From positions 62,001-126,000 of the forward strand of contig CALUFC010000002.1 in the NCBI GenBank assembly GCA_944319885.1: a stretch of DNA of 64,000 nucleotides, read 5' to 3'. The first letter of the stretch is position 1. Each line of letters begins with the position of its first letter. Both the position numbers and the translations under genes were made by a program. The stretch comes from an uncultured Coriobacteriaceae bacterium. Lineage in GTDB: Bacteria > Actinomycetota > Coriobacteriia > Coriobacteriales > Coriobacteriaceae. The notes beneath the pieces are model-generated. The model was not told the DNA's origin. It ran no database searches and was given only the letters and a program-made list of their open reading frames with translations. Below are positions 50,951-64,000 of the stretch, in pieces.

Positions 50951-51026
50951 GTCCTCGTTGCTCCTTACTCCAAAGGTTGGGTATCACATTACTTACCAGC
51001 TGCTTTGATATGGCGTTTTACGAAGA

Positions 51027-51050
51027 GCGAGGCGCATGTTTGCACCTCGC
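51027..51050 (-). terminator. Hairpin after the restriction gene
   Basis: A 9-bp stem with one G-T pair (51027-51035 with 51042-51050) has a 6-nt loop. Read leftward it ends in CTCTTCG. It lies between the R-M stop and nhaA. The 214-bp gap around it shows no gene. Confidence 0.45.
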
Positions 51051-51164
51051 CTTCTACATCCATCTTTGTATATCGTTGCATACGCATCGCTGACTCAATA
51101 AGGGGCATCGTGCGATTCCACAACCTGCTCCAAATTCGGACTAAGAGCGCGCACCCCGGAAGCG

Positions 51165-52025
51165 TCAATTAATTGCGCAATTCAAACTGTCACGACAGCG
51201 TTCGCGAACTTCCTCATGGCCACCTGCAACAGAACGTTCCAAAAGAAGGTTGCACACTCTATCAAAGAACGTCTCGATGGAAAGATCGACATCATACATC
51301 CTGTCTGCCAAGCTAGAGGAAAGCTCTGCACCACTTTGTTCATCCCATGTTGCGAGAATGAGCCCAACCACATCGTATGCATCGTCCTCAGACTGCAACT
51401 TCTGCAGCATAGAAACGATACGCGATAGATTTCCCGCGTCGGAAAGAACATCTTCATGCAACAACATGACAAAACCAGTGACCGCAAGCGGATGTCGACT
51501 TTTCAGGTTCTTGACATCTCCGTATGCCTCTTCAAAGCGGTTTGTCCAGTTCTTGCCAAAAGAACCACTCATGGTCTTGGTGGAAACGAGCAACTCAGGC
51601 CCTGAGGGCCACGTCGCCATCCCAACGTCTACCTGCTTGGAAAACGCAGCGCCTAAAACCCGCGCCTCCGAACCCGGATACGTATGAATACGTTCAAGAC
51701 ATGGCTTCGACGTACTCGATGGCAACCAAGATAGAAAAGACGTGATGGAAGGATCGAGCACCTGTGGAGCATCGTATCTCGGCCATATTGCCTCACGGTC
51801 GAATCCCGCCAGTCGGAGCTCCTCGGCTATCCAAACATCCAAGGCACCTGCTATATTCCCGGACTGCGGGTTGCACCCCTCGCGTGCAGCAACGTCGAGC
51901 AGGAGCTCCAAAACATCCCGCTCGGGCGTTGCCACGCCCCTACGCCAGAAAGCGCGCCCATCAGCACGCATGGTTTTATATGCTTCAATTGCGGCGACAA
52001 GCTTGAGGTATACATCCTTCTTCAT
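51165..52025 (-). CDS. Putative type II restriction endonuclease
   Basis: 286 residues. The assignment rests mainly on position: its ATG overlaps the methyltransferase stop (ATGA) in a two-gene unit. A possible PD-(D/E)xK core is QVDVGMATW...PELLVSTKTM, with Asp133 and Lys150 (a Ser where the acidic residue of ExK is common), followed by NRFEEAYGDVKNLK. The remainder is mixed helix and strand with no recognised recognition domain. GGAGG is 6 nt before the start. GC content is visibly lower than that of the flanking genes, which fits acquisition. The cut site is unknown. Confidence 0.65.
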   Translation of the reverse strand: MKKDVYLKLVAAIEAYKTMRADGRAFWRRGVATPERDVLELLLDVAAREGCNPQSGNIAGALDVWIAEELRLAGFDREAIWPRYDAPQVLDPSITSFLSWLPSSTSKPCLERIHTYPGSEARVLGAAFSKQVDVGMATWPSGPELLVSTKTMSGSFGKNWTNRFEEAYGDVKNLKSRHPLAVTGFVMLLHEDVLSDAGNLSRIVSMLQKLQSEDDAYDVVGLILATWDEQSGAELSSSLADRMYDVDLSIETFFDRVCNLLLERSVAGGHEEVRERCRDSLNCAIN

Positions 52026-53686
52026 GATTTTGCCTCCTTGGCTCGCCGCTGCCTCCGCAATCTCATCTGGTCGCTTGCGCACCTCATCGTATCAATCTCT
52101 TCATCTTCGAGAATGCCCTTCCACAGCGCAGCGTCTACGCAACCAGAAATACTGCTGAAGCGCCTCTCCTCATAGAAACCGTCGATACGATCTCGCAGGG
52201 CCATGAGCTGATCATATCTGTCTACGAGATGATCAAAGGAGGGAACGAGCCATCGCTTCGCTTCTCGAGGCTCGAGTTTCAGAACGCCCCCGCCGTAGCT
52301 CCGACCAGACAACTCTGCAGAAAAAAGCGATACCGATGAAAACGCTGCCATCGGCAGCACGCACTTACCAACATCTCTCATGTCTTCGTTGAATACGAGC
52401 CCATGAACCGAATTGACGCATGTGACATTGGCGTCATTCGCGCAGATGTTAGGACCATGAGCATTCATATAAGTAACGAAGGCATCGGGCGTCGCCGTTA
52501 CAGGAACGCGCCACCAAGGAGACCGCTTTCGACATTTGTATCGAGCCGATACCCCGCGCTGCTCTCCCGTTTGGATATATTGGCATGCAGCAGGTGATGG
52601 ATTGACCGGCCAAAACAGCCTTGTCTTCATTCCACACCCATCGAGTTCGAGCCAATCATCTCGATTGAACGTCACCTTGCGTAAATGGTTCGAGCCGGGA
52701 GGACATGCGGCAATCCAATCCCCGTCAACGAGACCCAGCTCTTCAACTTCGTGCTTCGATAAAACAAAGAAGCTGTTGCAACCGGTTACCGATCCGAGAG
52801 AAAGCCTTCCCCATTCCTTAAGTTCAACCAAGTAACCATCTTCAATGAGGCGCTGAACGATTGTAAGGGAGGTGTCAGGTGCAAGCACATTGGTCCAGCG
52901 TTCCCCGTTGGAAGCAGGCTTCCTCTCTTGAGGGGCAGAACGGTATGCAGAGTCAAGATCCTTGCACTGATACCACGAAATAGAATCGGAAACGCCCGAC
53001 TGGAACCCGTAGGCAAACAATAAAACGACTTCTTCTTGAACCTCTGGGAATATCCGCTCCTCGAAGGTAAATAGCTCTATGCGAGAAAACCTATTCAGCA
53101 GAAACGAGCGAATCGAAGCAGCATAGTTTACCGTGAGCAGTTCTGCAGGCAGAACCATCCCGATGCGTCCGCCCACAGATAGGAACTCACATGAATGCAG
53201 CAAGAAGGGAACCCAAAGTGATGACAGGAGGCTCAGTTTTATACCGCTTCGCTCAGCAATACGCCGAATCTCACGCTGCGAGGCCTCGTCGATGACCTGA
53301 AAACGAACATAGGGAGGATTTCCCACAATCACGTCAAAAGAGCAATTCGCCTGATATTGCAGAAAATCCCCAACCGTGATCTGGCAGGCAAATCCGTGCT
53401 TCCTCAACCGATCCACAGCAGCTTTTGCGCTCGGCGCATGCAGCTCACACCCGTGAACATGATCGCGCACATCCTGTTCGGTGGCACCCAGCTCACGTAA
53501 TCGTCTGCAAGAAGCCAGCAGAAATTCCGCCTCGCCGCATGAAGGCTCAAAAACCCGGTTGCTCTTTTCAGAGATAAGCCTGCTGGAAATAAAATCCGCA
53601 AGCTTTGATGGCGTAAAAAACGCTCCGCGCCGCTTTCTTCTTTCTGGGGCATCCTGCCGCTCAGTTAATACCGATCCATAAGCCAT
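52022..53686 (-). CDS. N6-adenine DNA methyltransferase (TaqI-like, type II R-M)
   Basis: 554 residues. Motif X is RGAFFTPSKLADF (21 onwards), motif I FEPSCGEAEFL (46-56), and motif IV VIVGNPPYVRF with NPPY at 123-126; GGRIGMVLPAELLTVNYA is the motif VI-like strand. The order X-I-IV is the gamma class (M.TaqI/Eco57I type). The C-terminal 300 residues are the target-recognition region. AAGGAGG precedes the ATG at 53686. It is the first gene of the R-M unit, so the methylase is made before the nuclease. GC content and codon use are lower than in the surrounding genes. Confidence 0.88.
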   Translation of the reverse strand: MAYGSVLTERQDAPERRKRRGAFFTPSKLADFISSRLISEKSNRVFEPSCGEAEFLLASCRRLRELGATEQDVRDHVHGCELHAPSAKAAVDRLRKHGFACQITVGDFLQYQANCSFDVIVGNPPYVRFQVIDEASQREIRRIAERSGIKLSLLSSLWVPFLLHSCEFLSVGGRIGMVLPAELLTVNYAASIRSFLLNRFSRIELFTFEERIFPEVQEEVVLLFAYGFQSGVSDSISWYQCKDLDSAYRSAPQERKPASNGERWTNVLAPDTSLTIVQRLIEDGYLVELKEWGRLSLGSVTGCNSFFVLSKHEVEELGLVDGDWIAACPPGSNHLRKVTFNRDDWLELDGCGMKTRLFWPVNPSPAACQYIQTGEQRGVSARYKCRKRSPWWRVPVTATPDAFVTYMNAHGPNICANDANVTCVNSVHGLVFNEDMRDVGKCVLPMAAFSSVSLFSAELSGRSYGGGVLKLEPREAKRWLVPSFDHLVDRYDQLMALRDRIDGFYEERRFSSISGCVDAALWKGILEDEEIDTMRCASDQMRLRRQRRAKEAKS

Positions 53687-53751
53687 GCGTCACCTCCTTG
53701 TACGCATTGACTATATCAATTTGTGCGGACATCAGCGATCTATCAACATCA

Positions 53752-53780
53752 ATAATACAAACATATGTTCGTTTATTCAA
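53752..53780 (-). promoter_or_regulatory. R-M promoter with LexA-type palindrome in the spacer
   Basis: Leftward TTGAAT (53775-53780), exactly 17 nt, TATTAT (53752-53757), about 65 bp before the methyltransferase start. Inside the spacer, 53758-53771 reads CGAACATATGTTTG on the minus strand, matching the Gram-positive LexA box pattern GAAC-N4-GTT(C/T). A bound repressor would occlude the promoter. Confidence 0.6.
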
Positions 53781-53800
53781 GAGCAATTCACGCTGCGGAA

Positions 53801-53839
53801 AGATCAGGGTCGACGCGATTGCAGCATCGACCCTGATCT
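53801..53839 (-). terminator. Terminator of the pilus/Hsp70/J operon
   Basis: A 13-bp perfect stem (53801-53813 with 53827-53839; AGATCAGGGTCGA) has a 13-nt loop. Read leftward it ends in TTTCC. It lies 115 bp after the J-protein stop and just upstream of the R-M promoter. Confidence 0.65.
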
Positions 53840-53953
53840 GTGCAAACCGAAAAATGCGCACGAAGCGAACGCTACTTGGATACAGAGGGAATCCACAGGT
53901 CGCGTACGAGTGCGTGGGCAGGAGGCGCCGCGTAGCATCAGAGGCGAGCGAAT

Positions 53954-55252
53954 TTATCCGGTTTCCAACGCATCCCAGAACTGCTCGCGCAGCCTATCCT
54001 TGCGCTCAAGCATATCCTCCTCCTGATTCATCCGCCCTGAATCCCCTACAGCAGCACCACTCTCTACGGCAGCGCCATCCCCTATGGCAGTCTTCCCTTC
54101 CTCGGGTGCAGGCGAGGCGGTCTCGCTCGGCTCCATCTCCGCTACCTCGCACGACGTGACCTCGGTCACAGTTCCACTTAGAGCCACGGTCAAACTGAGC
54201 AGATACGTCGTACCGCTCCCAAGCTCCTTAACCGTACATAAACCATCAAGCTCCCAATACGCCTCCCCAAAGGGCTCGATCGCAGTGATATCGGACACCT
54301 CGAACTCACCGCCGCCAAGCTCGTCGGCCATATAATCCGTGATGAAAGCCTTGTTCTCATCGGCGTTTTTCGCCAACAGCCCATCGATATCCTCGAAGGC
54401 AAACTCCGACCGCTCCTTCTCGAGATTGCGCCCGAAGTCTTCAACCTGCGTCTCGAGAGCCTGCTCCTTCTCATGCACTTGCTCCCTGTCCCATAGAAGC
54501 AAAAGAGCAAAACCTATGGACAGCACCAGCGCGACCGTCCAGGCAGCAGCGGCGATACGCTTCCTATGGAAGCTCCTGCGCGCACCCAGGCATTCAAAGG
54601 TCAACGTTCCCTCAGGTGCCTTAAGAGCCTTGAAGAGCTCGCTGAGCTGATGCCTGTCCGCCCTCTCCACATGCCGATGCAGGATGCTCCACACCTGCTC
54701 GTCGAAGGCCTCTCCTACCGGCCAGAACCGCTCGCAATCGTTACGATGCAAAAACGTGAGTGCCTCCGGACGATTCAGACCGCCCTCAAAGGCCGCTCTA
54801 AGCTCATCACACCACGCTTCCGCTTCCTGCTCGAGGACGACATCCTCCTCCAAGCCTGCGCGAAGATAGTCTGGAACGGCAAACTCGTCGTATCGCGCAG
54901 CCCGCTCGCGATGCATGCCCTGACGCGCACCATCGTACCCCAGCTCGCGATCAACCGGCGTGTCATGCGCCTGAGGCCGAGCATATCGCTCTTCCTCCCG
55001 CTCGTCCTTATCATCCGCCGCATTCGCTGTCTCATAGCGCTCTTCAACGGGAACCGAGACGCGCGGCATGTGCTTGGCGCGACGCACGTGAGCGAGCGCC
55101 ATCTCATATGCTTCGCGAATGCGCTCGTACTCATCGGGATGATCTTCGGGATGATAGAGCGATGCAAGCCGCGCATGCGCACGCCGCACGTCGCGCGCGG
55201 AGGACGCCTCCTCATCGAGTCCGAGGATCTTAAATGCCTCGTGAACTGTCAT
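53954..55252 (-). CDS. Membrane-anchored J-domain protein
   Basis: 432 residues. The N-terminal J domain reads MTVHEAFKILGLDEEASSARDVRRAHARLASLYHPEDHPDEYERIREAYEMALAH in type. At the HPD position it has HPE, with another HPD five residues on. An acidic linker and a helical region of about 90 residues (DEFAVPDYLRAGL ... FWPVGEAFDEQVWSIL) follow. One membrane helix (AAAWTVALVLSIGFALLLLW, about 233-252) leads to a coiled coil and an outer alpha+beta domain with an NTF2/lumazine-like strand pattern, then a Ser/Ala/Glu-rich tail. Its ATG overlaps the Hsp70-like stop (ATGA). It probably brings that Hsp70 to the membrane where pilins are exported. The role is inferred. Confidence 0.83.
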   Translation of the reverse strand: MTVHEAFKILGLDEEASSARDVRRAHARLASLYHPEDHPDEYERIREAYEMALAHVRRAKHMPRVSVPVEERYETANAADDKDEREEERYARPQAHDTPVDRELGYDGARQGMHRERAARYDEFAVPDYLRAGLEEDVVLEQEAEAWCDELRAAFEGGLNRPEALTFLHRNDCERFWPVGEAFDEQVWSILHRHVERADRHQLSELFKALKAPEGTLTFECLGARRSFHRKRIAAAAWTVALVLSIGFALLLLWDREQVHEKEQALETQVEDFGRNLEKERSEFAFEDIDGLLAKNADENKAFITDYMADELGGGEFEVSDITAIEPFGEAYWELDGLCTVKELGSGTTYLLSLTVALSGTVTEVTSCEVAEMEPSETASPAPEEGKTAIGDGAAVESGAAVGDSGRMNQEEDMLERKDRLREQFWDALETG

Positions 55253-57075
55253 GACAGCGTCCCTTCGTCCCCTTGTTCGCCCTCATCCTGCTCGATCTGG
55301 TCGTCGGAATCGTCAGCTGTGTCCCATGAATTCGGATCCATCCAATCGATATCCCACTGTGCCGCATCGCTCGCAGCAAAGAACGCATCCGCACCGGTAT
55401 CGCTCTCAACCATGTCCATCAATTGATGGAACTCCTCGATACGCTCCCTGATCCTGCGTACGCTGCCCCCCGCCAAAGCGTTCGAGCGGAATTCGTCGAA
55501 CGCGTTCTTCAAAAGCTGCTGAGCATCCTCGCTGCCCACCATATCGAAGAGATCCTCGGCGCGTTTCACCGCAAGACGGTACTCGGTGTTCGTGCTATCC
55601 AGCTTGATTTCACTCACCGTCGCTCGCAGCTGCACGTGCTCTTCGCCCGCCTTCAGCCGCCTCCAGCTCCTACCTTCATACACGTAGCGCGCGACAACGT
55701 TGCAATCTTTGACGCGCAGCTCGAGTGCCAGCAGACAGTTGATGTCGTAGAACAGCTTCGCAGAGCATTCCCTATACTTGTCTTTTGACGTTCCGACCTT
55801 GATCGATAGCTCGGTGAGCTGCTTGTTGTACTGGGGATAGATGCTTTCGCCTTGATAGATATCAAACGTGACGAACTTTCTCGTGCCAGGCACGTAAAAC
55901 GTAACTTCCCCTTGCGCAGGAAGCCTGGTATTCCGTTTGATGATGAACGAGCTCCGTAGGGAGTATGTCTCGAGGTCCCCCAACGAAGTCGATAGCGAAA
56001 AGGGGCAGACATCGGAAAGCAGGATGTCGCGCACGCCCTCGCTCCGTTGCATCACGCCGACGTACATCCCCAGACCGAGCGCAATCGCGTAATCGCATTG
56101 TTCGGTCGAGGTCACCGGAACGTTCAGAGCCGCCATGAGATAACGGCGAACAACCGGCATATGCGAGGATCCGCCCACCATAACCAGCGAGGTAATTTCC
56201 TCGGGCTCGAAGCCCGCATCGCCGAGCGCTCGCTTGAGCGGAATGGACATCCTTTTGAAGATCTTGCAGGACAGCTCATAGAGACGCCGGCACGTAAGAT
56301 GGAGCGGCTTATCGTAGCCGGGCGCCTGCACGGAAACGTCTGTCTCGGCATCCATCGTGTCGAGCCGCCGCTTCGCCCGCTCCGCAGCGAGCCGCAGCTC
56401 CTCGTACAGAGGCGTGCCCGGGTCGGGATGGATCTGCCCGTTGACCGCACTGAGCTCACGCGCGATCACTGCATCGAAATCTATGCCTCCCAGCTGGTTA
56501 TCACCCGAGACGGCGCACGTGTTCACCACGTTCTCAAAGCAGTCGACAACCGAGACGTCTAAGGTTCCACCGCCGAAGTCAAAGACGACGAAGGTTTCCT
56601 CGCTCTCAAGATCGTGGTTGGCAAGCGCCGCTGCCGAGGGCTCATTGATCAATCGGTTGACCCGAATGCCCGCGATCTCCGCCGCGCGCTTCGTCGCCAC
56701 GCGCTGGGCGATGTCGAAATATGCCGGCACGCTTACCACCGCCTCGGTGACCGGCTCGCCTAGATACGCCTCCGCATCCTCCACGAGCTGGCGCAACACG
56801 CACGCCGATAGTTCCTCCGGCGTATAGCTTCTCCCGGCGAGCTTGACCTTCTCGTCCGAGCCCATGAGGCGCTTGAACCGCGCGCAGGTTCGCTCGGGGT
56901 GCGTGGCCAAGCACGCCGCCGCCGGCGCTCCCACAACGGGACCATGCTCCCCTATGGTGACGACGCTGGGAGTGAGATAGGAGCCATACGCGTTTGGTAT
57001 GAGTTCCGACTTGCCATTCCGCCAAGTCGCAACCAAGCTGTTTGTTGTTCCAAGGTCGATCCCCACAATCGCCAT
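55249..57075 (-). CDS. Hsp70/DnaK-like chaperone of the pilus operon
   Basis: 608 residues. The ATPase domain is complete: MAIVGIDLGTTNSLVATW, the P-loop region FVVFDFGGGTLDVSVVD, INEPSAAALANHDL and MVGGSSHMPVVRRYL. A substrate-binding-like beta domain (LRSSFIIKRNTRLPAQGEVTFY ... YQGESIYPQYNKQLTELSI) follows, then a short helical end. The beta domain is divergent and lacks the long DnaK lid and C-terminal EEVD-like tail, so this is not the housekeeping DnaK. The start is fixed at 57075 by GGAG and by the Hsp70 N-terminus; the longer frame is a shadow. It is 14 bp after a sortase gene and coupled to the J gene. Confidence 0.88.
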   Translation of the reverse strand: MAIVGIDLGTTNSLVATWRNGKSELIPNAYGSYLTPSVVTIGEHGPVVGAPAAACLATHPERTCARFKRLMGSDEKVKLAGRSYTPEELSACVLRQLVEDAEAYLGEPVTEAVVSVPAYFDIAQRVATKRAAEIAGIRVNRLINEPSAAALANHDLESEETFVVFDFGGGTLDVSVVDCFENVVNTCAVSGDNQLGGIDFDAVIARELSAVNGQIHPDPGTPLYEELRLAAERAKRRLDTMDAETDVSVQAPGYDKPLHLTCRRLYELSCKIFKRMSIPLKRALGDAGFEPEEITSLVMVGGSSHMPVVRRYLMAALNVPVTSTEQCDYAIALGLGMYVGVMQRSEGVRDILLSDVCPFSLSTSLGDLETYSLRSSFIIKRNTRLPAQGEVTFYVPGTRKFVTFDIYQGESIYPQYNKQLTELSIKVGTSKDKYRECSAKLFYDINCLLALELRVKDCNVVARYVYEGRSWRRLKAGEEHVQLRATVSEIKLDSTNTEYRLAVKRAEDLFDMVGSEDAQQLLKNAFDEFRSNALAGGSVRRIRERIEEFHQLMDMVESDTGADAFFAASDAAQWDIDWMDPNSWDTADDSDDQIEQDEGEQGDEGTLS

Positions 57076-57089
57076 GCCGCACTCCAATT

Positions 57090-57815
57090 CTAAGAACGAC
57101 GCTCTATCTGCTCGCAATACACCACGTAGCGTTGATAGTTCTCGTAAAGCGGGTGGCAGGTAACCAGCGTGAGCATGGTCTTTCCCTGCTGTATCTTCAC
57201 TGCCTCGATATCCGAGGGGTCGATCACCGCGGTTCCCGTCACGCGATATACAAGCGTTTCCCACGGATTGTCCACGTACACCTCATCACCCGCGACGAGG
57301 CGAGGGATGTTGTTGAAATACGTGTTGGCCCGGTAACCTCGATGCCCGGCTATGACCGCATTCGCCGAGACCCCCTCGACCGCGCGCATCGGCAGGCTCG
57401 TCTGCGAGAGATGGGCCGCGCCCGCATCGATATGCTCTTCCGTAGCGCCCAGATACACGGGCATATCGATCTGCGCGGCAGGAATTCTAAGACGAGCGAA
57501 GATCTCGTCTGAAAACCCCCAGCGGGCGAGGTCGAAGCTGGGCTCCTCGTAGCTCCAGGCATCCTTGAGGCCGGCCTGTCCCGCATTATCGAGCTCGCGG
57601 TTGTACGCATCGACCGCCCTGCGCAGATCTTGCAGAACGGTCCCGGCGTCTTGCAGCTGCCCCACCGACGCCTCAAAGCGCTCGATCTCCTGCGTCATCC
57701 CAATGCCGCGGCACCACGCCTCGACGTACGGAAACGCCGCGATGGCGATCCCCGCGATCACGCCCGCGCCCGCGAGAGCCCTCAGCACACGTATGCGCCC
57801 CTCCTCAGCGCCCAT
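57090..57815 (-). CDS. srtC: Sortase (pilin-polymerising, class C-like), second copy
   Basis: 241 residues from ATG 57815. One N-terminal membrane helix (VLRALAGAGVIAGIAIAAFPYVE) precedes a sortase barrel with AVIAGHRGYRANTYFNNI (catalytic His), MLTLVTCHPLYENYQRYVVYCE (catalytic Cys in TCHP, Arg after it). Class C enzymes usually read TLxTCTP and carry an N-terminal DPW/DPF lid; the lid is not obvious here and there is no C-terminal helix. Its start overlaps the previous sortase by 11 bp. It may load the tip or anchor subunit. Confidence 0.88.
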   Translation of the reverse strand: MGAEEGRIRVLRALAGAGVIAGIAIAAFPYVEAWCRGIGMTQEIERFEASVGQLQDAGTVLQDLRRAVDAYNRELDNAGQAGLKDAWSYEEPSFDLARWGFSDEIFARLRIPAAQIDMPVYLGATEEHIDAGAAHLSQTSLPMRAVEGVSANAVIAGHRGYRANTYFNNIPRLVAGDEVYVDNPWETLVYRVTGTAVIDPSDIEAVKIQQGKTMLTLVTCHPLYENYQRYVVYCEQIERRS

Positions 57816-58767
57816 GACGACGCCTCGTCGATGCGATGATCTTCCTTGCTGCCACAACGACACCGAGCACGACGGCTCCCAACGCCACGCCAGCTTGGAA
57901 GGGGCTCACCCGCCGCATATCGTCACCTTCGGCGGCAGCCCGCTTGGGATCATACGGGCAGCGCTCTCCCCGCACGAGCAAGCGATGCGTGTTCACGCCA
58001 TAGGGCGTGCAGGTTGCGAGCGTCACATAGTCGTGCCCAGCATGCGCACTGAGCTTTGCCATCTCATCTGGCTCTATGACCGAAATATCGTCCACGCGGT
58101 ATGCCATGACCTCATCGAGCACCGTGATATAGAACTCGTCGCCTATCTTGAGCTCATCGAGACGGGAGAAGAGCTCTGCTTGAGGCATACCGCGATGCGC
58201 TGTAAGTACGGGATTTCGACCCACCTCACCAATGGGCAGCGCCGTCTGCTCGATATGGCCCACGCCTTTTGCAAGCACCTCTTCGCTAGAGCCATGGTAG
58301 ATGGGAAGCTGAACAGAGATCGCGGGGATCTCGATGTATCCCATAACGCCATCGCCCGCCAAATTAAGCACCTGTTCGTAGTTCTCGGGCAAGGCATAGC
58401 CGCTACCGGGAACAAACGGATCGTGTACCGGATCTCCTGCAAGGTTCTCGTTGTATTCAACTGCCTCGGCGCGGGCATGCTCTAAAACCTCGGGAGCATA
58501 CTGAGCAACGGACTGCTCGTAATCGACGATGACAGAACTTGCATGCAGCTCTGAGAGATAATTGCTGATCGCGGGATACGCCATGATCAAGAGCCCGATG
58601 ACGACAAGAGCCGCGCCCGCGAGCGTCTGCGGGAACCGCTTGGAATGTTGGCGGGCGGCACCGTACGCTGAACGGCGCGACGCGCCCGCGCTATACGACG
58701 AGCCCGCCCAAGCGGCAGTGTGCACGGATCGCGGCCTCACTGCCACAGGAGGACGAACGGTATCCAT
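57805..58767 (-). CDS. srtC: Class C sortase (pilin polymerase)
   Basis: 320 residues from ATG 58767 (a GTG at 58809 is possible). An N-terminal cytoplasmic segment and membrane helix (ALVVIGLLIMAYPAISNYL) are followed by the lid motif HDPFVPG, then the barrel with NPVLTAHRGMPQAELFSRL (catalytic His), YVTLATCTPYGVNTHRLLVRGER (catalytic Cys and Arg) and a C-terminal membrane helix. Lid plus two helices is the classic class C layout for building covalent pili. It follows the major pilin gene after a strong hairpin. Confidence 0.93.
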   Translation of the reverse strand: MDTVRPPVAVRPRSVHTAAWAGSSYSAGASRRSAYGAARQHSKRFPQTLAGAALVVIGLLIMAYPAISNYLSELHASSVIVDYEQSVAQYAPEVLEHARAEAVEYNENLAGDPVHDPFVPGSGYALPENYEQVLNLAGDGVMGYIEIPAISVQLPIYHGSSEEVLAKGVGHIEQTALPIGEVGRNPVLTAHRGMPQAELFSRLDELKIGDEFYITVLDEVMAYRVDDISVIEPDEMAKLSAHAGHDYVTLATCTPYGVNTHRLLVRGERCPYDPKRAAAEGDDMRRVSPFQAGVALGAVVLGVVVAARKIIASTRRRHGR

Positions 58768-58826
58768 ACGCGCTCGTTGCTGAAAGTCATCGCATCCCAA
58801 TGAGATCACCCATCATGTCGGGGGAA

Positions 58827-58862
58827 GGGGATCCGGCCGGAGCACGCTCCAGCCGGATCCCC
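58827..58862 (-). terminator. Strong hairpin between pilin and sortase genes
   Basis: An 11-bp perfect stem (58827-58837 with 58852-58862, GGGGATCCGGC) has four further inner pairs. Only a C-rich tail with TTCC follows leftward. It is probably a partial terminator or RNA-processing/stability stem that lets pilin be made in excess over sortase. Confidence 0.7.
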
Positions 58863-58907
58863 CACGTTTAATCGAACGCCCTTGAAACCCTTGAAAAAAG
58901 ATGCTGC

Positions 58908-60476
58908 TTATGCGCGGTCGTCACGCTTGCGCAGCGCGTACAGCGCTCCCACACCGCAGGCGATGACAACGACGCCCGCCGCGGTAAAGAGTGCGGTACC
59001 CATACCGCCCGTGGTGGGAAGCACAAAGCCCTTGTTGTTCACAACCTCCACAGGCACATAGCCGATCTTGCCGGATTGCTCGCCCTGAACGTGCCCGGTA
59101 TACTCTCCCTGGCTCTCAGTCGCCTTAATCACGACCTCTATCGGGGAGATAGGGTTGTAGCCCTCGGGAGTCTTGGACTCATACAGCGTATACGTTCCCG
59201 CAGCAAGACCTTTGAGGTCGAGCTTGCCCTGGCTGGACACCACGAGGGTCTTGTTCGCGCCGCCCTCGGAAGCCTTTGCCACGCGATACTGGCCATCGCC
59301 AATCTTGATGAACTGAATCTCGGTGCCATCCTCATCGGTCAGGTAGAACTCGGCACCTGCAAGCGGCTGCTTGTTGCCATCGACCTTGCTCACGTCGATA
59401 CCGTAGGTGTATACCTTGACCTTGTCGGTGTTCTCACGCCAGTTGCCGTCTGGATCACGCCAAACGATGCGAGCATCATTCTCGTTGCCAAGTTCGCCCA
59501 CAACCGCGTTCTCGTTCACCGTGGCAGAGTAGGTAACCGAGATGGACGGATACTGCTGCTTATCAAGGAACGTCTTAGTGAACGTGATGAGGAAGGTCAT
59601 CGGGGTGCTCGACTCCGGATGCTTGGCATCCGTAGTGTTCAGCGTATAGTCAGTACCGGCAGAAAGCAAGGTCTTCCGACCTCCGGAGCTGACACCATAG
59701 ACCTTGATGCTCGACGTATCGAGTGTAAGACCGTCACACATGGTATCGCCCACGTACAGCTCACGATTGGTGGATCCCTCCGCCCACTGGGGAATCTGCG
59801 AATCGATGACGTACGGCACAACGTCGCCGACCTGATACTGATTCGTGTCGTCATCCTCGCGCCCCGTGCTATCATCGAACTTCTTATCGATGGTGATAGG
59901 TTCGCGCTTGAGCGTCACGTTGTAGTTGTCCTCGATTGTCCATTGGCCTTCATTGAGAACTGGAACCAGGTTGACAACAGCTTCCTTGTAGTTGTAGCTG
60001 ATACTGCTCGTAGAGAGCAGGAGGTAGGAGCCCATCTGGAGCTTTCCGCTCGTTGTATTTCCAGTCAGCTTTTGGCTCGGTCCAAGGATCACGTCACGGC
60101 TTCAAATAGCGTCGCCAAGCTTTTTGAAGAACGTTTCCTTCTGCGTTGAAGTGAGGCTCTGGGTGAATTGGTCGCTTACTTTGCCGTTCGCACCAACATA
60201 TGAAGGGTAATTATTTCGTACCCAGCTGACAACATTCGTAGTCGATCCACCCGCGCTGTTCCAGTAATACCCCTCGGGCGAAGCCTGTCCATCTTCCCAC
60301 TTAACGGTAATTACCTGGTAGACCGAAGTTTCGGTTGCTGATTCGGCACCAGAAACGGTAATTGTTGCCGTGGACCGATTGGTCGCATTTGCCGCATGTG
60401 CTGGCGTCGCAGCAAAGACCATCGCGACCAATGCTACGAAAGCGGCGAACAATACCTGCAGCCTTCTCTTTCCCAT
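58908..60476 (-). pseudogene. Major LPXTG pilin gene interrupted by one in-frame TGA
   Basis: One continuous reading frame of 522 codons broken only by TGA at 60102-60104 (codon 125). The first part has a ribosome site AAAGGAG, a signal peptide ending in TPAHA, and the start of a pilin domain. After the TGA the same frame continues SRDVILGPSQKLTGN into isopeptide-type pilin domains. It has an E-box (LYESKTPEGYN), Cna-B-like segment (LAGAEFYLTDEDGTEI), sorting signal LPTTG, a hydrophobic helix and a basic tail. No good internal start lies after the stop. CGA-to-TGA or TGG-to-TGA by a single change would explain it. Read-through, phase change or a sequencing error are alternatives. Confidence 0.8.
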
Positions 60477-60580
60477 ATTGTACTTTCTCCTTTCACCCAG
60501 CCCCAGTTTAATAGGGCAAGATCCACTGCATCGGCAGCTGCGCTGGTTTACATGGCGCAGCCTAGGTATGAGGCGTCACG

Positions 60581-63500
60581 TCATAGCCGCCCCCCTCGCC
60601 GCAAACGGGCACGAACGACAAATCCTACGGCGCTAACCGCTACACCTGCAGCCACGAACATGGCGATGCCGCGACCGCCCGCGTGCGGAATGTCCATGGG
60701 GCGATAGTTGGGGAGCTGCCAAGATCCGGAGTCTGTAGTCGCGAATGCCGGAGGCATCGTCGCGCCATCGGCGACGGCGACGATGGAAATGGGGCTTTCG
60801 TCATCCAGCGCGTCTACAGTTACATTCCACTGACCAGTAGGCTGGAAGTAGCCCGTAGGCGCTTTGGTTTCCACCAAGCGGTACACGCCTGACTTGAGTT
60901 TTGCGAAGCTCACGAGACCGGTATCTTCTGCGCTTTCCTGCGTTTGAACCAGCTCCCAGGAGCTACCCGGATCCTCAACATCAAGCAGCCCATCCTGCGG
61001 CGCCTCGCCATCGCCATTCCATTTGAAGAGCTTGAACTCGGCGCCGGCAAGGGGCACCGTTGTGGAGTCGCCATCTACCTTGGCAAATGAAAAGTCCACA
61101 TCGGCGGGTGTGGGTGCCGTGGTCGCCGTGGAAGAGACGGCCTTCTTGAGCGCATGCGCTTCAAGCGTGACAGTGTTCGTGAACGTATCGCTCGTGTTGT
61201 GCAGCAGCTCGGTACGAGCATCATCCCAACCATAGTCGAACGAGAGACTTAAGACTGCGCCCGGAGGAACCGGCGTGGTGCCCAGCGTGAAGAATCCTAT
61301 GGCGAGGATTTCTTGACCATCCAGCGCGTTTTCCACCGCCTGCTTGGAGCTTGCATCGAGGCTGCCGTCGGCGTTGAAGCGGATTCGTTCATGCTGCCAG
61401 CCATCTCCCCCAAAGCCGAGGTGGGTCATTGAATCCCAAAGGGTGCCATCCTTCTGCATCGCGCGCATGTTTTCACGGCTGAGATAGCCGGGAATCATGT
61501 ATGCCATGTATAGCGACCGGTCTTCAGGAAAGCCGGCGGCGTTGAATGAGACGTTCTTGAGCTTGTAATCCTCGAGCTCGCGAATATCCTCTGCGGTTGT
61601 GCTCCAAGACCCGTCATCAGCACCGGGAAGAATGTCCACCACGCTCAGCAGCTGGAGCGGAGCCGTGTCATCATCCGCATTGTTCATGAATGTAATGTCG
61701 AAGCCCATGGGGTCGGTGCCCTCTGCGTTGCGCTGCTCCACCTTGGGCGTCTTGATAACCGCAGCGCTCTGACTCCTCACCACGGCAACTGTGGCAGAAC
61801 TGGAATCAGCAGCTCCGCTCACCGCAAGCGAAGCAGAAACCGTATTCGCCAACGAGTCGCCGTTTGCGAGATCCTTGAAGGGGTCATCGGATGAACCAAG
61901 CCTCACCGAGTAGTGAATCTTGGGCAGGTTGTACGACACCGGAACGTTGTTGAACGTCCAGGTGAGCGTTGTTGATCCATCTTCATTTGCCCGTTCATCA
62001 ACGGTGTAGGAAAGCTTGGACGTTGAACCGGACCAGCCATCCATAGCAGATTGCATGGTGTCCCACGCCTCGGTATCGCTGGCATCGACGGAGACCGTGT
62101 CGTCGCCGTCTGCAACCCACTCACCGCCGGCGCCGCCGTTGGTAGTTCCGTCTTGCCTATAGTCACCGCCATAGGCGATGCCCCAGCGTTCCTCGGGCGT
62201 CGCGCCATCGGGATTCACCGGGTTCATGCCTGCGGGAATCGTGTCCGTCAACGTGACGGTATCGGTGAGGCGCGATAGATCTGAGCCGGTATGCTGCGCA
62301 TCGATGGAGAAGTCCACCCGGCGCTGTCCCTCATCTAAGTTGAAATTGACCTTAGGCAAGCCCTCGGACTGCTGAGCGACTTCTTTCTTAACATCGACAC
62401 CGTTGAGACGCACGTAGAACGACGCACCGCCGGCGGCGGGAGTGTTATCGTATCCTCCATTTAGTCGCGCTGCGCTCTCCGCCATCTTGGATACGTTTCC
62501 GCTCGCGTCAAACTCAGCCTTCTTGTAGCCGGTGAAGATGTTGTCGGAAAAGGTGCCAAGCCCGCTTCTGTGGGCCCACTGCCATTTCCCAAGGGTCGTG
62601 GTGGTATCACTCCTCCTCCGATACGCATTGGTGTTCACGTACTCCGTCTTTCCGGAGAGCGCATTGGTTTCGGTGCGATAGAGGTCTACACAAGAGGTGG
62701 TGGAATCCCATGTCAGGATACCAACCAGTCGCGGGTCATCCTTTTTGGTTATTGCCTCGCCATCCCGAACCGCCGCGTCCGTCTTTATGCGCATTGGCAC
62801 TGAACGAATCTGAACGTACAACGAGGTTGCCACTCGAAAGCCTGTTTTTTGATAGGCAAAATGGTCTTCCATCATTTGCTTATCGACGAGGATGTCGTAC
62901 ACCACGCCAACAATCGGATCACCAGAAGCTATTGCATCCTCATAACTGCTGTGAACCGAGAGTGACCCAGTGGGCTTATCTTCAAAGTGCGTTGCGTTGT
63001 CGTTACCCAGATGAGTTGTCAACAGCTCCTCATCCGAGCTCCACCCACCGGGCTTTGTAACGTATTTGACGGTAGTCTCAGCATCACCATGATGAAGCCA
63101 GCCAGAATCCTGCGAGAAGACAGCAGACTCGATAGGAACCTCATCCAACATGTCCCCGTTCACCTCGAACACCTCGTCATCGAACTTCATGAACTTCGTG
63201 ACGTAGCGGGGAGCGTCCAGACGCGAAAAGTAGCTCGTAGAATCATCGTCGAGGAAGTGATACTGGTTTTGGCTCGCAGTCACAAACGATTCCCCCGGGG
63301 ATACCTCATAGATACCGGAGTGCGAACCACCATCCAGATTCGATCCATCGGGAATACTGTACATCTTGGTCAGAGAACCATCGTCCTCAATGCGCTCTGT
63401 TGTGTAGCCGTGGATAATCGTCGTGTTGTAGTTAATGTGGAAACCGTGATCCCCCTCAACCGGCGCGCCGGGGCTGTGAATCTGGGAGCACTGATCATCC

Positions 63501-64000
63501 TCGGCATAGCAATCGCCCGAAACAGCGCCGCCAGTGTCCTCGACTCTTAGGTCGGTGATCTCGACCCACGTTGTATGCCAGTCATAACCATACTGCGGAG
63601 CTTCGACCTCGAAGAGATAGGAGCCGAAGTTGTAGACCACCTCGGAATCGTAGTCGGGATTCTTGGTTTCCTCCGTTCGCGAGGCGTTGTAGTTCGCGGA
63701 AACCTTATCGATGTTCTGCTTGTCGATATTGAAGGCGCCAATCTGGAATGTGAAGGTGGCGGGAGTGCCGTTGCCGGTGTCGTTTTTGTACTCCTTTACA
63801 CCGATAGCCCCGCTGTCGTAAATCGTGTTGAACGAGGTCTTATGGCTGCCATCGGGTTGCATGCCAAACGGCGCGGTCACGCCATAATCATCTTCGCCAA
63901 GCACCCTGTTGTTCCAAGGACTCGATCCTGATTGCGCTTCACCGAGAGCGTTGACCTTCACCGCCTTCAGGTTCTGTCCCCAGTCCGTCTGGAAATCGAC
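60581..64000 (-). CDS. Large pilus-associated surface adhesin (probable tip or minor pilin), 5' end beyond the window
   Basis: At least 1139 residues; the frame stays open through base 64000, so the N-terminus and signal peptide are outside. Repeated beta-rich domains (TLTWTFNNVPVSYNLPKIHYSVRLG and similar) fit a chain of Ig-like isopeptide modules. Near the end a Cna-B domain is clear (VDFSFAKVDGDSTTVPLAGAEFKLFKW ... GVYRLVETKAPTGYFQ with the Glu of the E-box). It ends with IPHAGG, a hydrophobic helix and RARLRRGG, a sorting signal that departs from LPxTG. The gene is 104 bp upstream of the pilin gene in the same operon. Confidence 0.9.
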   Translation of the reverse strand, partial: VDFQTDWGQNLKAVKVNALGEAQSGSSPWNNRVLGEDDYGVTAPFGMQPDGSHKTSFNTIYDSGAIGVKEYKNDTGNGTPATFTFQIGAFNIDKQNIDKVSANYNASRTEETKNPDYDSEVVYNFGSYLFEVEAPQYGYDWHTTWVEITDLRVEDTGGAVSGDCYAEDDQCSQIHSPGAPVEGDHGFHINYNTTIIHGYTTERIEDDGSLTKMYSIPDGSNLDGGSHSGIYEVSPGESFVTASQNQYHFLDDDSTSYFSRLDAPRYVTKFMKFDDEVFEVNGDMLDEVPIESAVFSQDSGWLHHGDAETTVKYVTKPGGWSSDEELLTTHLGNDNATHFEDKPTGSLSVHSSYEDAIASGDPIVGVVYDILVDKQMMEDHFAYQKTGFRVATSLYVQIRSVPMRIKTDAAVRDGEAITKKDDPRLVGILTWDSTTSCVDLYRTETNALSGKTEYVNTNAYRRRSDTTTTLGKWQWAHRSGLGTFSDNIFTGYKKAEFDASGNVSKMAESAARLNGGYDNTPAAGGASFYVRLNGVDVKKEVAQQSEGLPKVNFNLDEGQRRVDFSIDAQHTGSDLSRLTDTVTLTDTIPAGMNPVNPDGATPEERWGIAYGGDYRQDGTTNGGAGGEWVADGDDTVSVDASDTEAWDTMQSAMDGWSGSTSKLSYTVDERANEDGSTTLTWTFNNVPVSYNLPKIHYSVRLGSSDDPFKDLANGDSLANTVSASLAVSGAADSSSATVAVVRSQSAAVIKTPKVEQRNAEGTDPMGFDITFMNNADDDTAPLQLLSVVDILPGADDGSWSTTAEDIRELEDYKLKNVSFNAAGFPEDRSLYMAYMIPGYLSRENMRAMQKDGTLWDSMTHLGFGGDGWQHERIRFNADGSLDASSKQAVENALDGQEILAIGFFTLGTTPVPPGAVLSLSFDYGWDDARTELLHNTSDTFTNTVTLEAHALKKAVSSTATTAPTPADVDFSFAKVDGDSTTVPLAGAEFKLFKWNGDGEAPQDGLLDVEDPGSSWELVQTQESAEDTGLVSFAKLKSGVYRLVETKAPTGYFQPTGQWNVTVDALDDESPISIVAVADGATMPPAFATTDSGSWQLPNYRPMDIPHAGGRGIAMFVAAGVAVSAVGFVVRARLRRGGRL

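What the first reader, a model, noticed from the sequence alone, without database searches (positions are those of the whole stretch)
60102..60104. In-frame TGA inside the major pilin gene
The frame before and after is the same and both halves are good pilin sequence, so only one codon is wrong. It could be a recent nonsense mutation that switches off pili, a reversible change, stop-codon read-through, or an assembly error. No good start or SECIS-like element follows.
Basis: seen in the sequence. Interest (0 to 1): 0.6.

Follow-up and report, generated by a model that had tools for sequence, protein, structure and literature searches.

The report
Pilus gene broken by stop codon
The gene for the main building block of a surface pilus in a gut bacterium related to Collinsella carries one misplaced stop signal, which most likely just switches the pilus off, as is already known in other bacteria.

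Summary
On the minus strand, 60104-60102 reads TGA, codon 125 of an otherwise open 522-codon gene (60476-58908) for a sortase-assembled backbone (major) pilin with ribosome-binding site, signal peptide, Pfam PF16569, PF17802 and PF00746, E-box and LPTTG. The four nearest relatives found align through the stop with no gap next to it; one codon is replaced, at a column where 26 of 26 relatives vary and none has Trp, Cys or a stop. So no conserved recoding site. The genome has no SelA, no tRNA-Sec over threshold, 42 tRNAs with ordinary anticodons and a normal RF2. No repeat that could flip the codon was found. Best reading: a nonsense mutation that makes the backbone pilin a pseudogene; all polymerisation and anchoring parts lie downstream, so no pilus shaft is expected. 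A base error in the draft assembly is the main rival and cannot be excluded, because no conspecific strain or reads were available. The cluster sits in a block of about 14.8 kb missing from a close relative. Nonsense-broken backbone pilins are known (Streptococcus suis sbp2). Ordinary.

The parts
58908..60476 (-). Backbone (major) pilin gene, interrupted; 522 codons if the TGA is passed over
   Evidence: Pfam PF16569/PF17802/PF00746; solved pilin relatives
60102..60104 (-). In-frame TGA, codon 125, in the N-terminal domain
60102..60476 (-). Truncated product: signal peptide plus part of the N-terminal domain (124 aa)
   Evidence: AAGGAG seen
58908..60101 (-). Untranslated remainder: rest of N-terminal domain, the Pfam pilin domains, E-box, LPTTG anchor; no clear Shine-Dalgarno site before its first possible starts
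60581..64000 (-). Large tip-type pilin, intact; runs past the window end to the contig position equal to window 65467 (1628 aa)
   Evidence: PF17802
57805..58809 (-). Sortase 1, intact
   Evidence: PF04203
57090..57863 (-). Sortase 2, intact
   Evidence: PF04203
50968..64000 (.). Accessory block holding the pilus cluster (continues to about 65782 in contig terms); replaced by about 175 bases in relative G065

Best explanation
A nonsense mutation has turned the only backbone-pilin gene of this type in the genome into a pseudogene. Ribosomes stop after 124 residues (shown by the sequence). The product would be a secreted or degraded fragment of the N-terminal domain, without the region where the pilin-motif lysine is expected, the main pilin domains and the LPTTG anchor (position shown, consequence inferred). 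The two cluster sortases and the tip pilin are intact, but with no backbone subunit no pilus shaft should form; the tip pilin might still be displayed singly (inferred). The damage looks recent because the other genes and the remaining 397 codons are open (inferred).
For: TGA in frame between two halves that align jointly to intact relatives. All 26 relatives aligned lack a stop at this position. No restart signal. RF2 present; TGA ends 5 of the 8 other genes listed, so TGA is a normal stop here. No SelA, tRNA-Sec under threshold, 42 ordinary tRNAs. Accessory location. Precedent: backbone pilin sbp2 of S. suis truncated by nonsense mutations (passages of PMC2797073).
Against: No second strain of the species and no reads were available, so a base error is not excluded. 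A single stop with no other damage is also what an error, or a leaky functional stop, would look like. UGA is the leakiest bacterial stop (recalled).
Confidence: 0.8

Rival explanations
1. The base is wrong in the assembly, or is a minority or mixed allele of the sequenced population, and the gene is intact.
For: Draft assembly of 29 contigs, 1.66% contamination; only one base need be wrong; all else in the cluster is intact.
Against: 99.8% complete assembly with the cluster inside a 145-kb contig; substitution errors are rare in such drafts and nonsense pseudogenes are common (established knowledge, not measured here). No homopolymer at the codon itself.
Confidence: 0.14
2. The TGA is translated at a low rate by near-cognate tRNA, so some full-length pilin is made.
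For: UGA is leaky in bacteria (recalled). The rest of the frame is undamaged.
Against: No relative shares the stop: 0 of 26. Nothing marks a selected read-through site. RF2 present.
Confidence: 0.04
3. The codon encodes selenocysteine or another programmed residue.
For: Only that the frame continues.
Against: SelA absent, with E. coli and M. jannaschii ringing among the control genomes; best tRNA-Sec score 46.5, below the cut-off of 47, and it is tRNA-Ser with anticodon UGA; no Cys or Trp at the column in 26 of 26 relatives.
Confidence: 0.005
4. A reversible on/off switch of pili acts at this codon.
For: Pili are often phase variable (recalled).
Against: No inverted repeat around the codon and no tandem or homopolymer tract at it.
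Confidence: 0.015

Closest known systems
sbp2 of the Streptococcus suis srtBCD pilus cluster
   Same: Backbone pilin gene truncated by a nonsense mutation while the cluster persists (passages of PMC2797073)
   Different: In S. suis it recurs in many strains; here one genome only
sfp2 of the Streptococcus suis srtF cluster
   Same: Pilin gene with an early nonsense codon (ochre after codon 49), first annotated as two ORFs
   Different: Ancillary, not backbone subunit; pili of the major subunit still form
SpaH/EbpB-type LPXTG major pilins
   Same: Domain set and sorting signal
   Different: Plasmid-borne matches are about 29-30% identical over half the length, and intact

Membership tests
Sortase-assembled backbone pilin | Signal peptide, pilin domains with E-box, C-terminal LPXTG anchor | tested here: met
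   PF16569, PF17802, PF00746; LPTTG and an E-box read; signal peptide by eye
Sortase-assembled backbone pilin | Linked sortase and ancillary pilin genes | tested here: met
   two PF04203 genes and a 1628-aa PF17802 protein adjacent; sortase class not tested
Sortase-assembled backbone pilin | Pilin-motif lysine used for polymerisation | tested here: inconclusive
   a lysine-bearing stretch lies at the end of the N-terminal domain, aligned with L164-L167, but no canonical VYPK
Pseudogene by nonsense mutation | In-frame stop before essential domains, absent from relatives | tested here: met
   stop in 0 of 26 relatives
Pseudogene by nonsense mutation | No functional product | not testable with these tools
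   needs protein data
Selenoprotein | Sec biosynthesis genes in the genome | tested here: not met
   SelA absent; tRNA-Sec not over cut-off
Phase-variable gene | Repeat tract or invertible element | tested here: not met
   and the sequence

The most novel reading that the evidence does not exclude
The UGA is kept on purpose: leaky read-through sets a low dose of backbone pilin, so that few or short pili are made while the tip pilin is displayed singly.
Probability: 0.02. Interest if true: 0.6.

Novelty: new member of a known kind. Interest (0 to 1): 0.12.

Why it matters
It adds one example, from a Collinsella-like gut bacterium, to the known pattern that accessory pilus clusters can be broken in the backbone gene. 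It also warns that this genome should not be counted as piliated from gene content alone.

Tried and rejected
Searched for close copies of the pilin: none in genome contigs, viral contigs or among plasmids at high identity (9 records, all under 60%). So no strain comparison was possible.

Two separate genes side by side: rejected, since relatives have one frame across the site and the second part has no clear start signal or signal peptide.

Paired frameshifts instead of one codon: rejected, since the nearest relatives align without a gap beside the stop and other frames score below zero.

A codon-usage scan of the whole window did not single out the site: 147 stops had 60 open codons on both sides, and the site was not among the 25 printed. 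One search took minus-strand loci in the wrong orientation and was replaced. Residues 126-195 tested alone scored 0.0 bits against the 12-relative profile (the head of that output was cut), so the profile evidence next to the stop was weak until nearer relatives were found.

Rows set aside: of 27 matches besides the window's own, the alignment used 23 (L004-L026), with a subset of 12 (L004-L015); L027-L030 were left out. One search used those 12 plus 14 new loci (L164-L177).

Full report
Observation. The triplet at 60102-60104 is TGA on the minus strand. It lies in frame at codon 125 of a gene running from ATG 60476 to TAA 58908. An AAGGAG sequence precedes the ATG, followed by a typical signal peptide (by eye). 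With the stop read as X the protein has 522 residues and no other stop.

What the gene is. Pfam finds PF16569 (residues 216-338), PF17802 (360-459) and PF00746 (479-520), all after the stop. Solved relatives are Gram-positive surface pilins; 23 distinct sequences match at E up to 0.001, and the best (9uvr, E 1.1e-24) aligns from residue 95 to 520, through the stop. Two intact sortases lie downstream and a 1628-residue PF17802 protein, a probable tip pilin, upstream. It is the only backbone pilin of this type in the genome: the other two matches in the whole genome are the tip protein and a weak match at E 0.098.

One codon only. In the family, 22 of 65 genomes (own included) match at E up to 1e-8, at 27-42% identity, and their N-terminal domains diverge. 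In the order, 23 of 395 genomes (own included) match at E up to 1e-30, the best relative at 7e-79. Four of these (L164-L167) share the motif around the stop and align with no gap next to it; the residue at the position differs in each. Over 26 relatives the column is variable, with no stop, Trp or Cys. The N-terminal domain alone is a weak match to the family profile: 9.4 bits against a maximum of 6.8 among reported shuffles (170 of 200 reported), other frames below zero; and the first 124 residues find no pilin in the PDB set (7 matches, E 0.25 to 6.2, none a pilin).

Translation of UGA. RF2 is present at 469.7 bits. In one search, TGA ends 5 of the 8 other genes listed (the DNA methylase, its neighbour, Hsp70, the first sortase and the tip pilin). 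SelA is absent, with E. coli and Methanocaldococcus ringing as controls. No tRNA-Sec reaches the cut-off; the best match, 46.5 against 47, is tRNA-Ser with anticodon UGA. All 42 tRNA matches were read by ARAGORN and have ordinary anticodons; a suppressor missed by the tRNA model is not excluded. Possible internal starts at codons 129, 148 and 187 have no clear Shine-Dalgarno sequence.

Setting. By its pyrophosphatase the genome is a Coriobacteriaceae member near Collinsella; the nearest record is an uncultured Coriobacteriaceae MAG at 97%. In that MAG's genome (G065) the flanking DNA is collinear with the window, but the stretch between window 50967 and 65783 (contig terms) is replaced by about 175 bases. 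The block of about 14.8 kb holds a DNA methylase, a J-domain-like and an Hsp70-like protein, two sortases and the pilins, at generally lower GC than the flanks. No direct repeat of 11 bases or more joins the two edges searched. G065 has only one weak match to the pilin anywhere, at E 0.02. The cluster is therefore accessory; whether it was gained here or lost there is not settled.

Interpretation. The best explanation is a nonsense mutation that has inactivated the backbone pilin of an accessory pilus cluster. An error in one base of the draft is the chief rival. Read-through, recoding and a switch have nothing in their favour beyond the open frame.

Known cases. In Streptococcus suis the backbone pilin gene sbp2 is truncated by nonsense mutations in serotype 2 strains, and the ancillary gene sfp2 has an early ochre codon (passages of PMC2797073). 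Of that paper nine passages were read, of PMC8088525 two (not informative here) and of PMC5536039 twelve (pilus assembly and the pilin-motif lysine). Searches for Collinsella with pili and sortase (5 papers) or with pilin (12 papers) listed none whose title concerns Collinsella pili; these papers were seen in the listing only.

Noticed in passing
window 50968-64000, to about 65782 in contig terms: A block of about 14.8 kb with generally lower GC, carrying an Eco57I-type DNA methylase and the pilus cluster, is replaced by about 175 bases in relative G065.
   Followed up: partly
window 53954-57264 (-): An Hsp70-like protein and a J-domain-like protein follow directly on the second sortase; whether this pair belongs to pilus clusters was not tested.
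   Followed up: no
window 60102-60476: Third-position GC of the first 124 codons is 0.54 against 0.72 for the part after codon 195; in 12 relatives the drop is at most 0.12. The 5' part may be of different origin.
   Followed up: partly
L028 (genome G016): A 3' remnant of another pilin with a stop inside the matched stretch, in another genome of the family; its tail is nearly the same as that of several intact pilins.
   Followed up: partly
window 60581-60700 (-): The tip-type pilin ends in a sorting-like signal with IPHAG instead of LPXTG (by eye); Pfam's anchor model did not match it.
   Followed up: no
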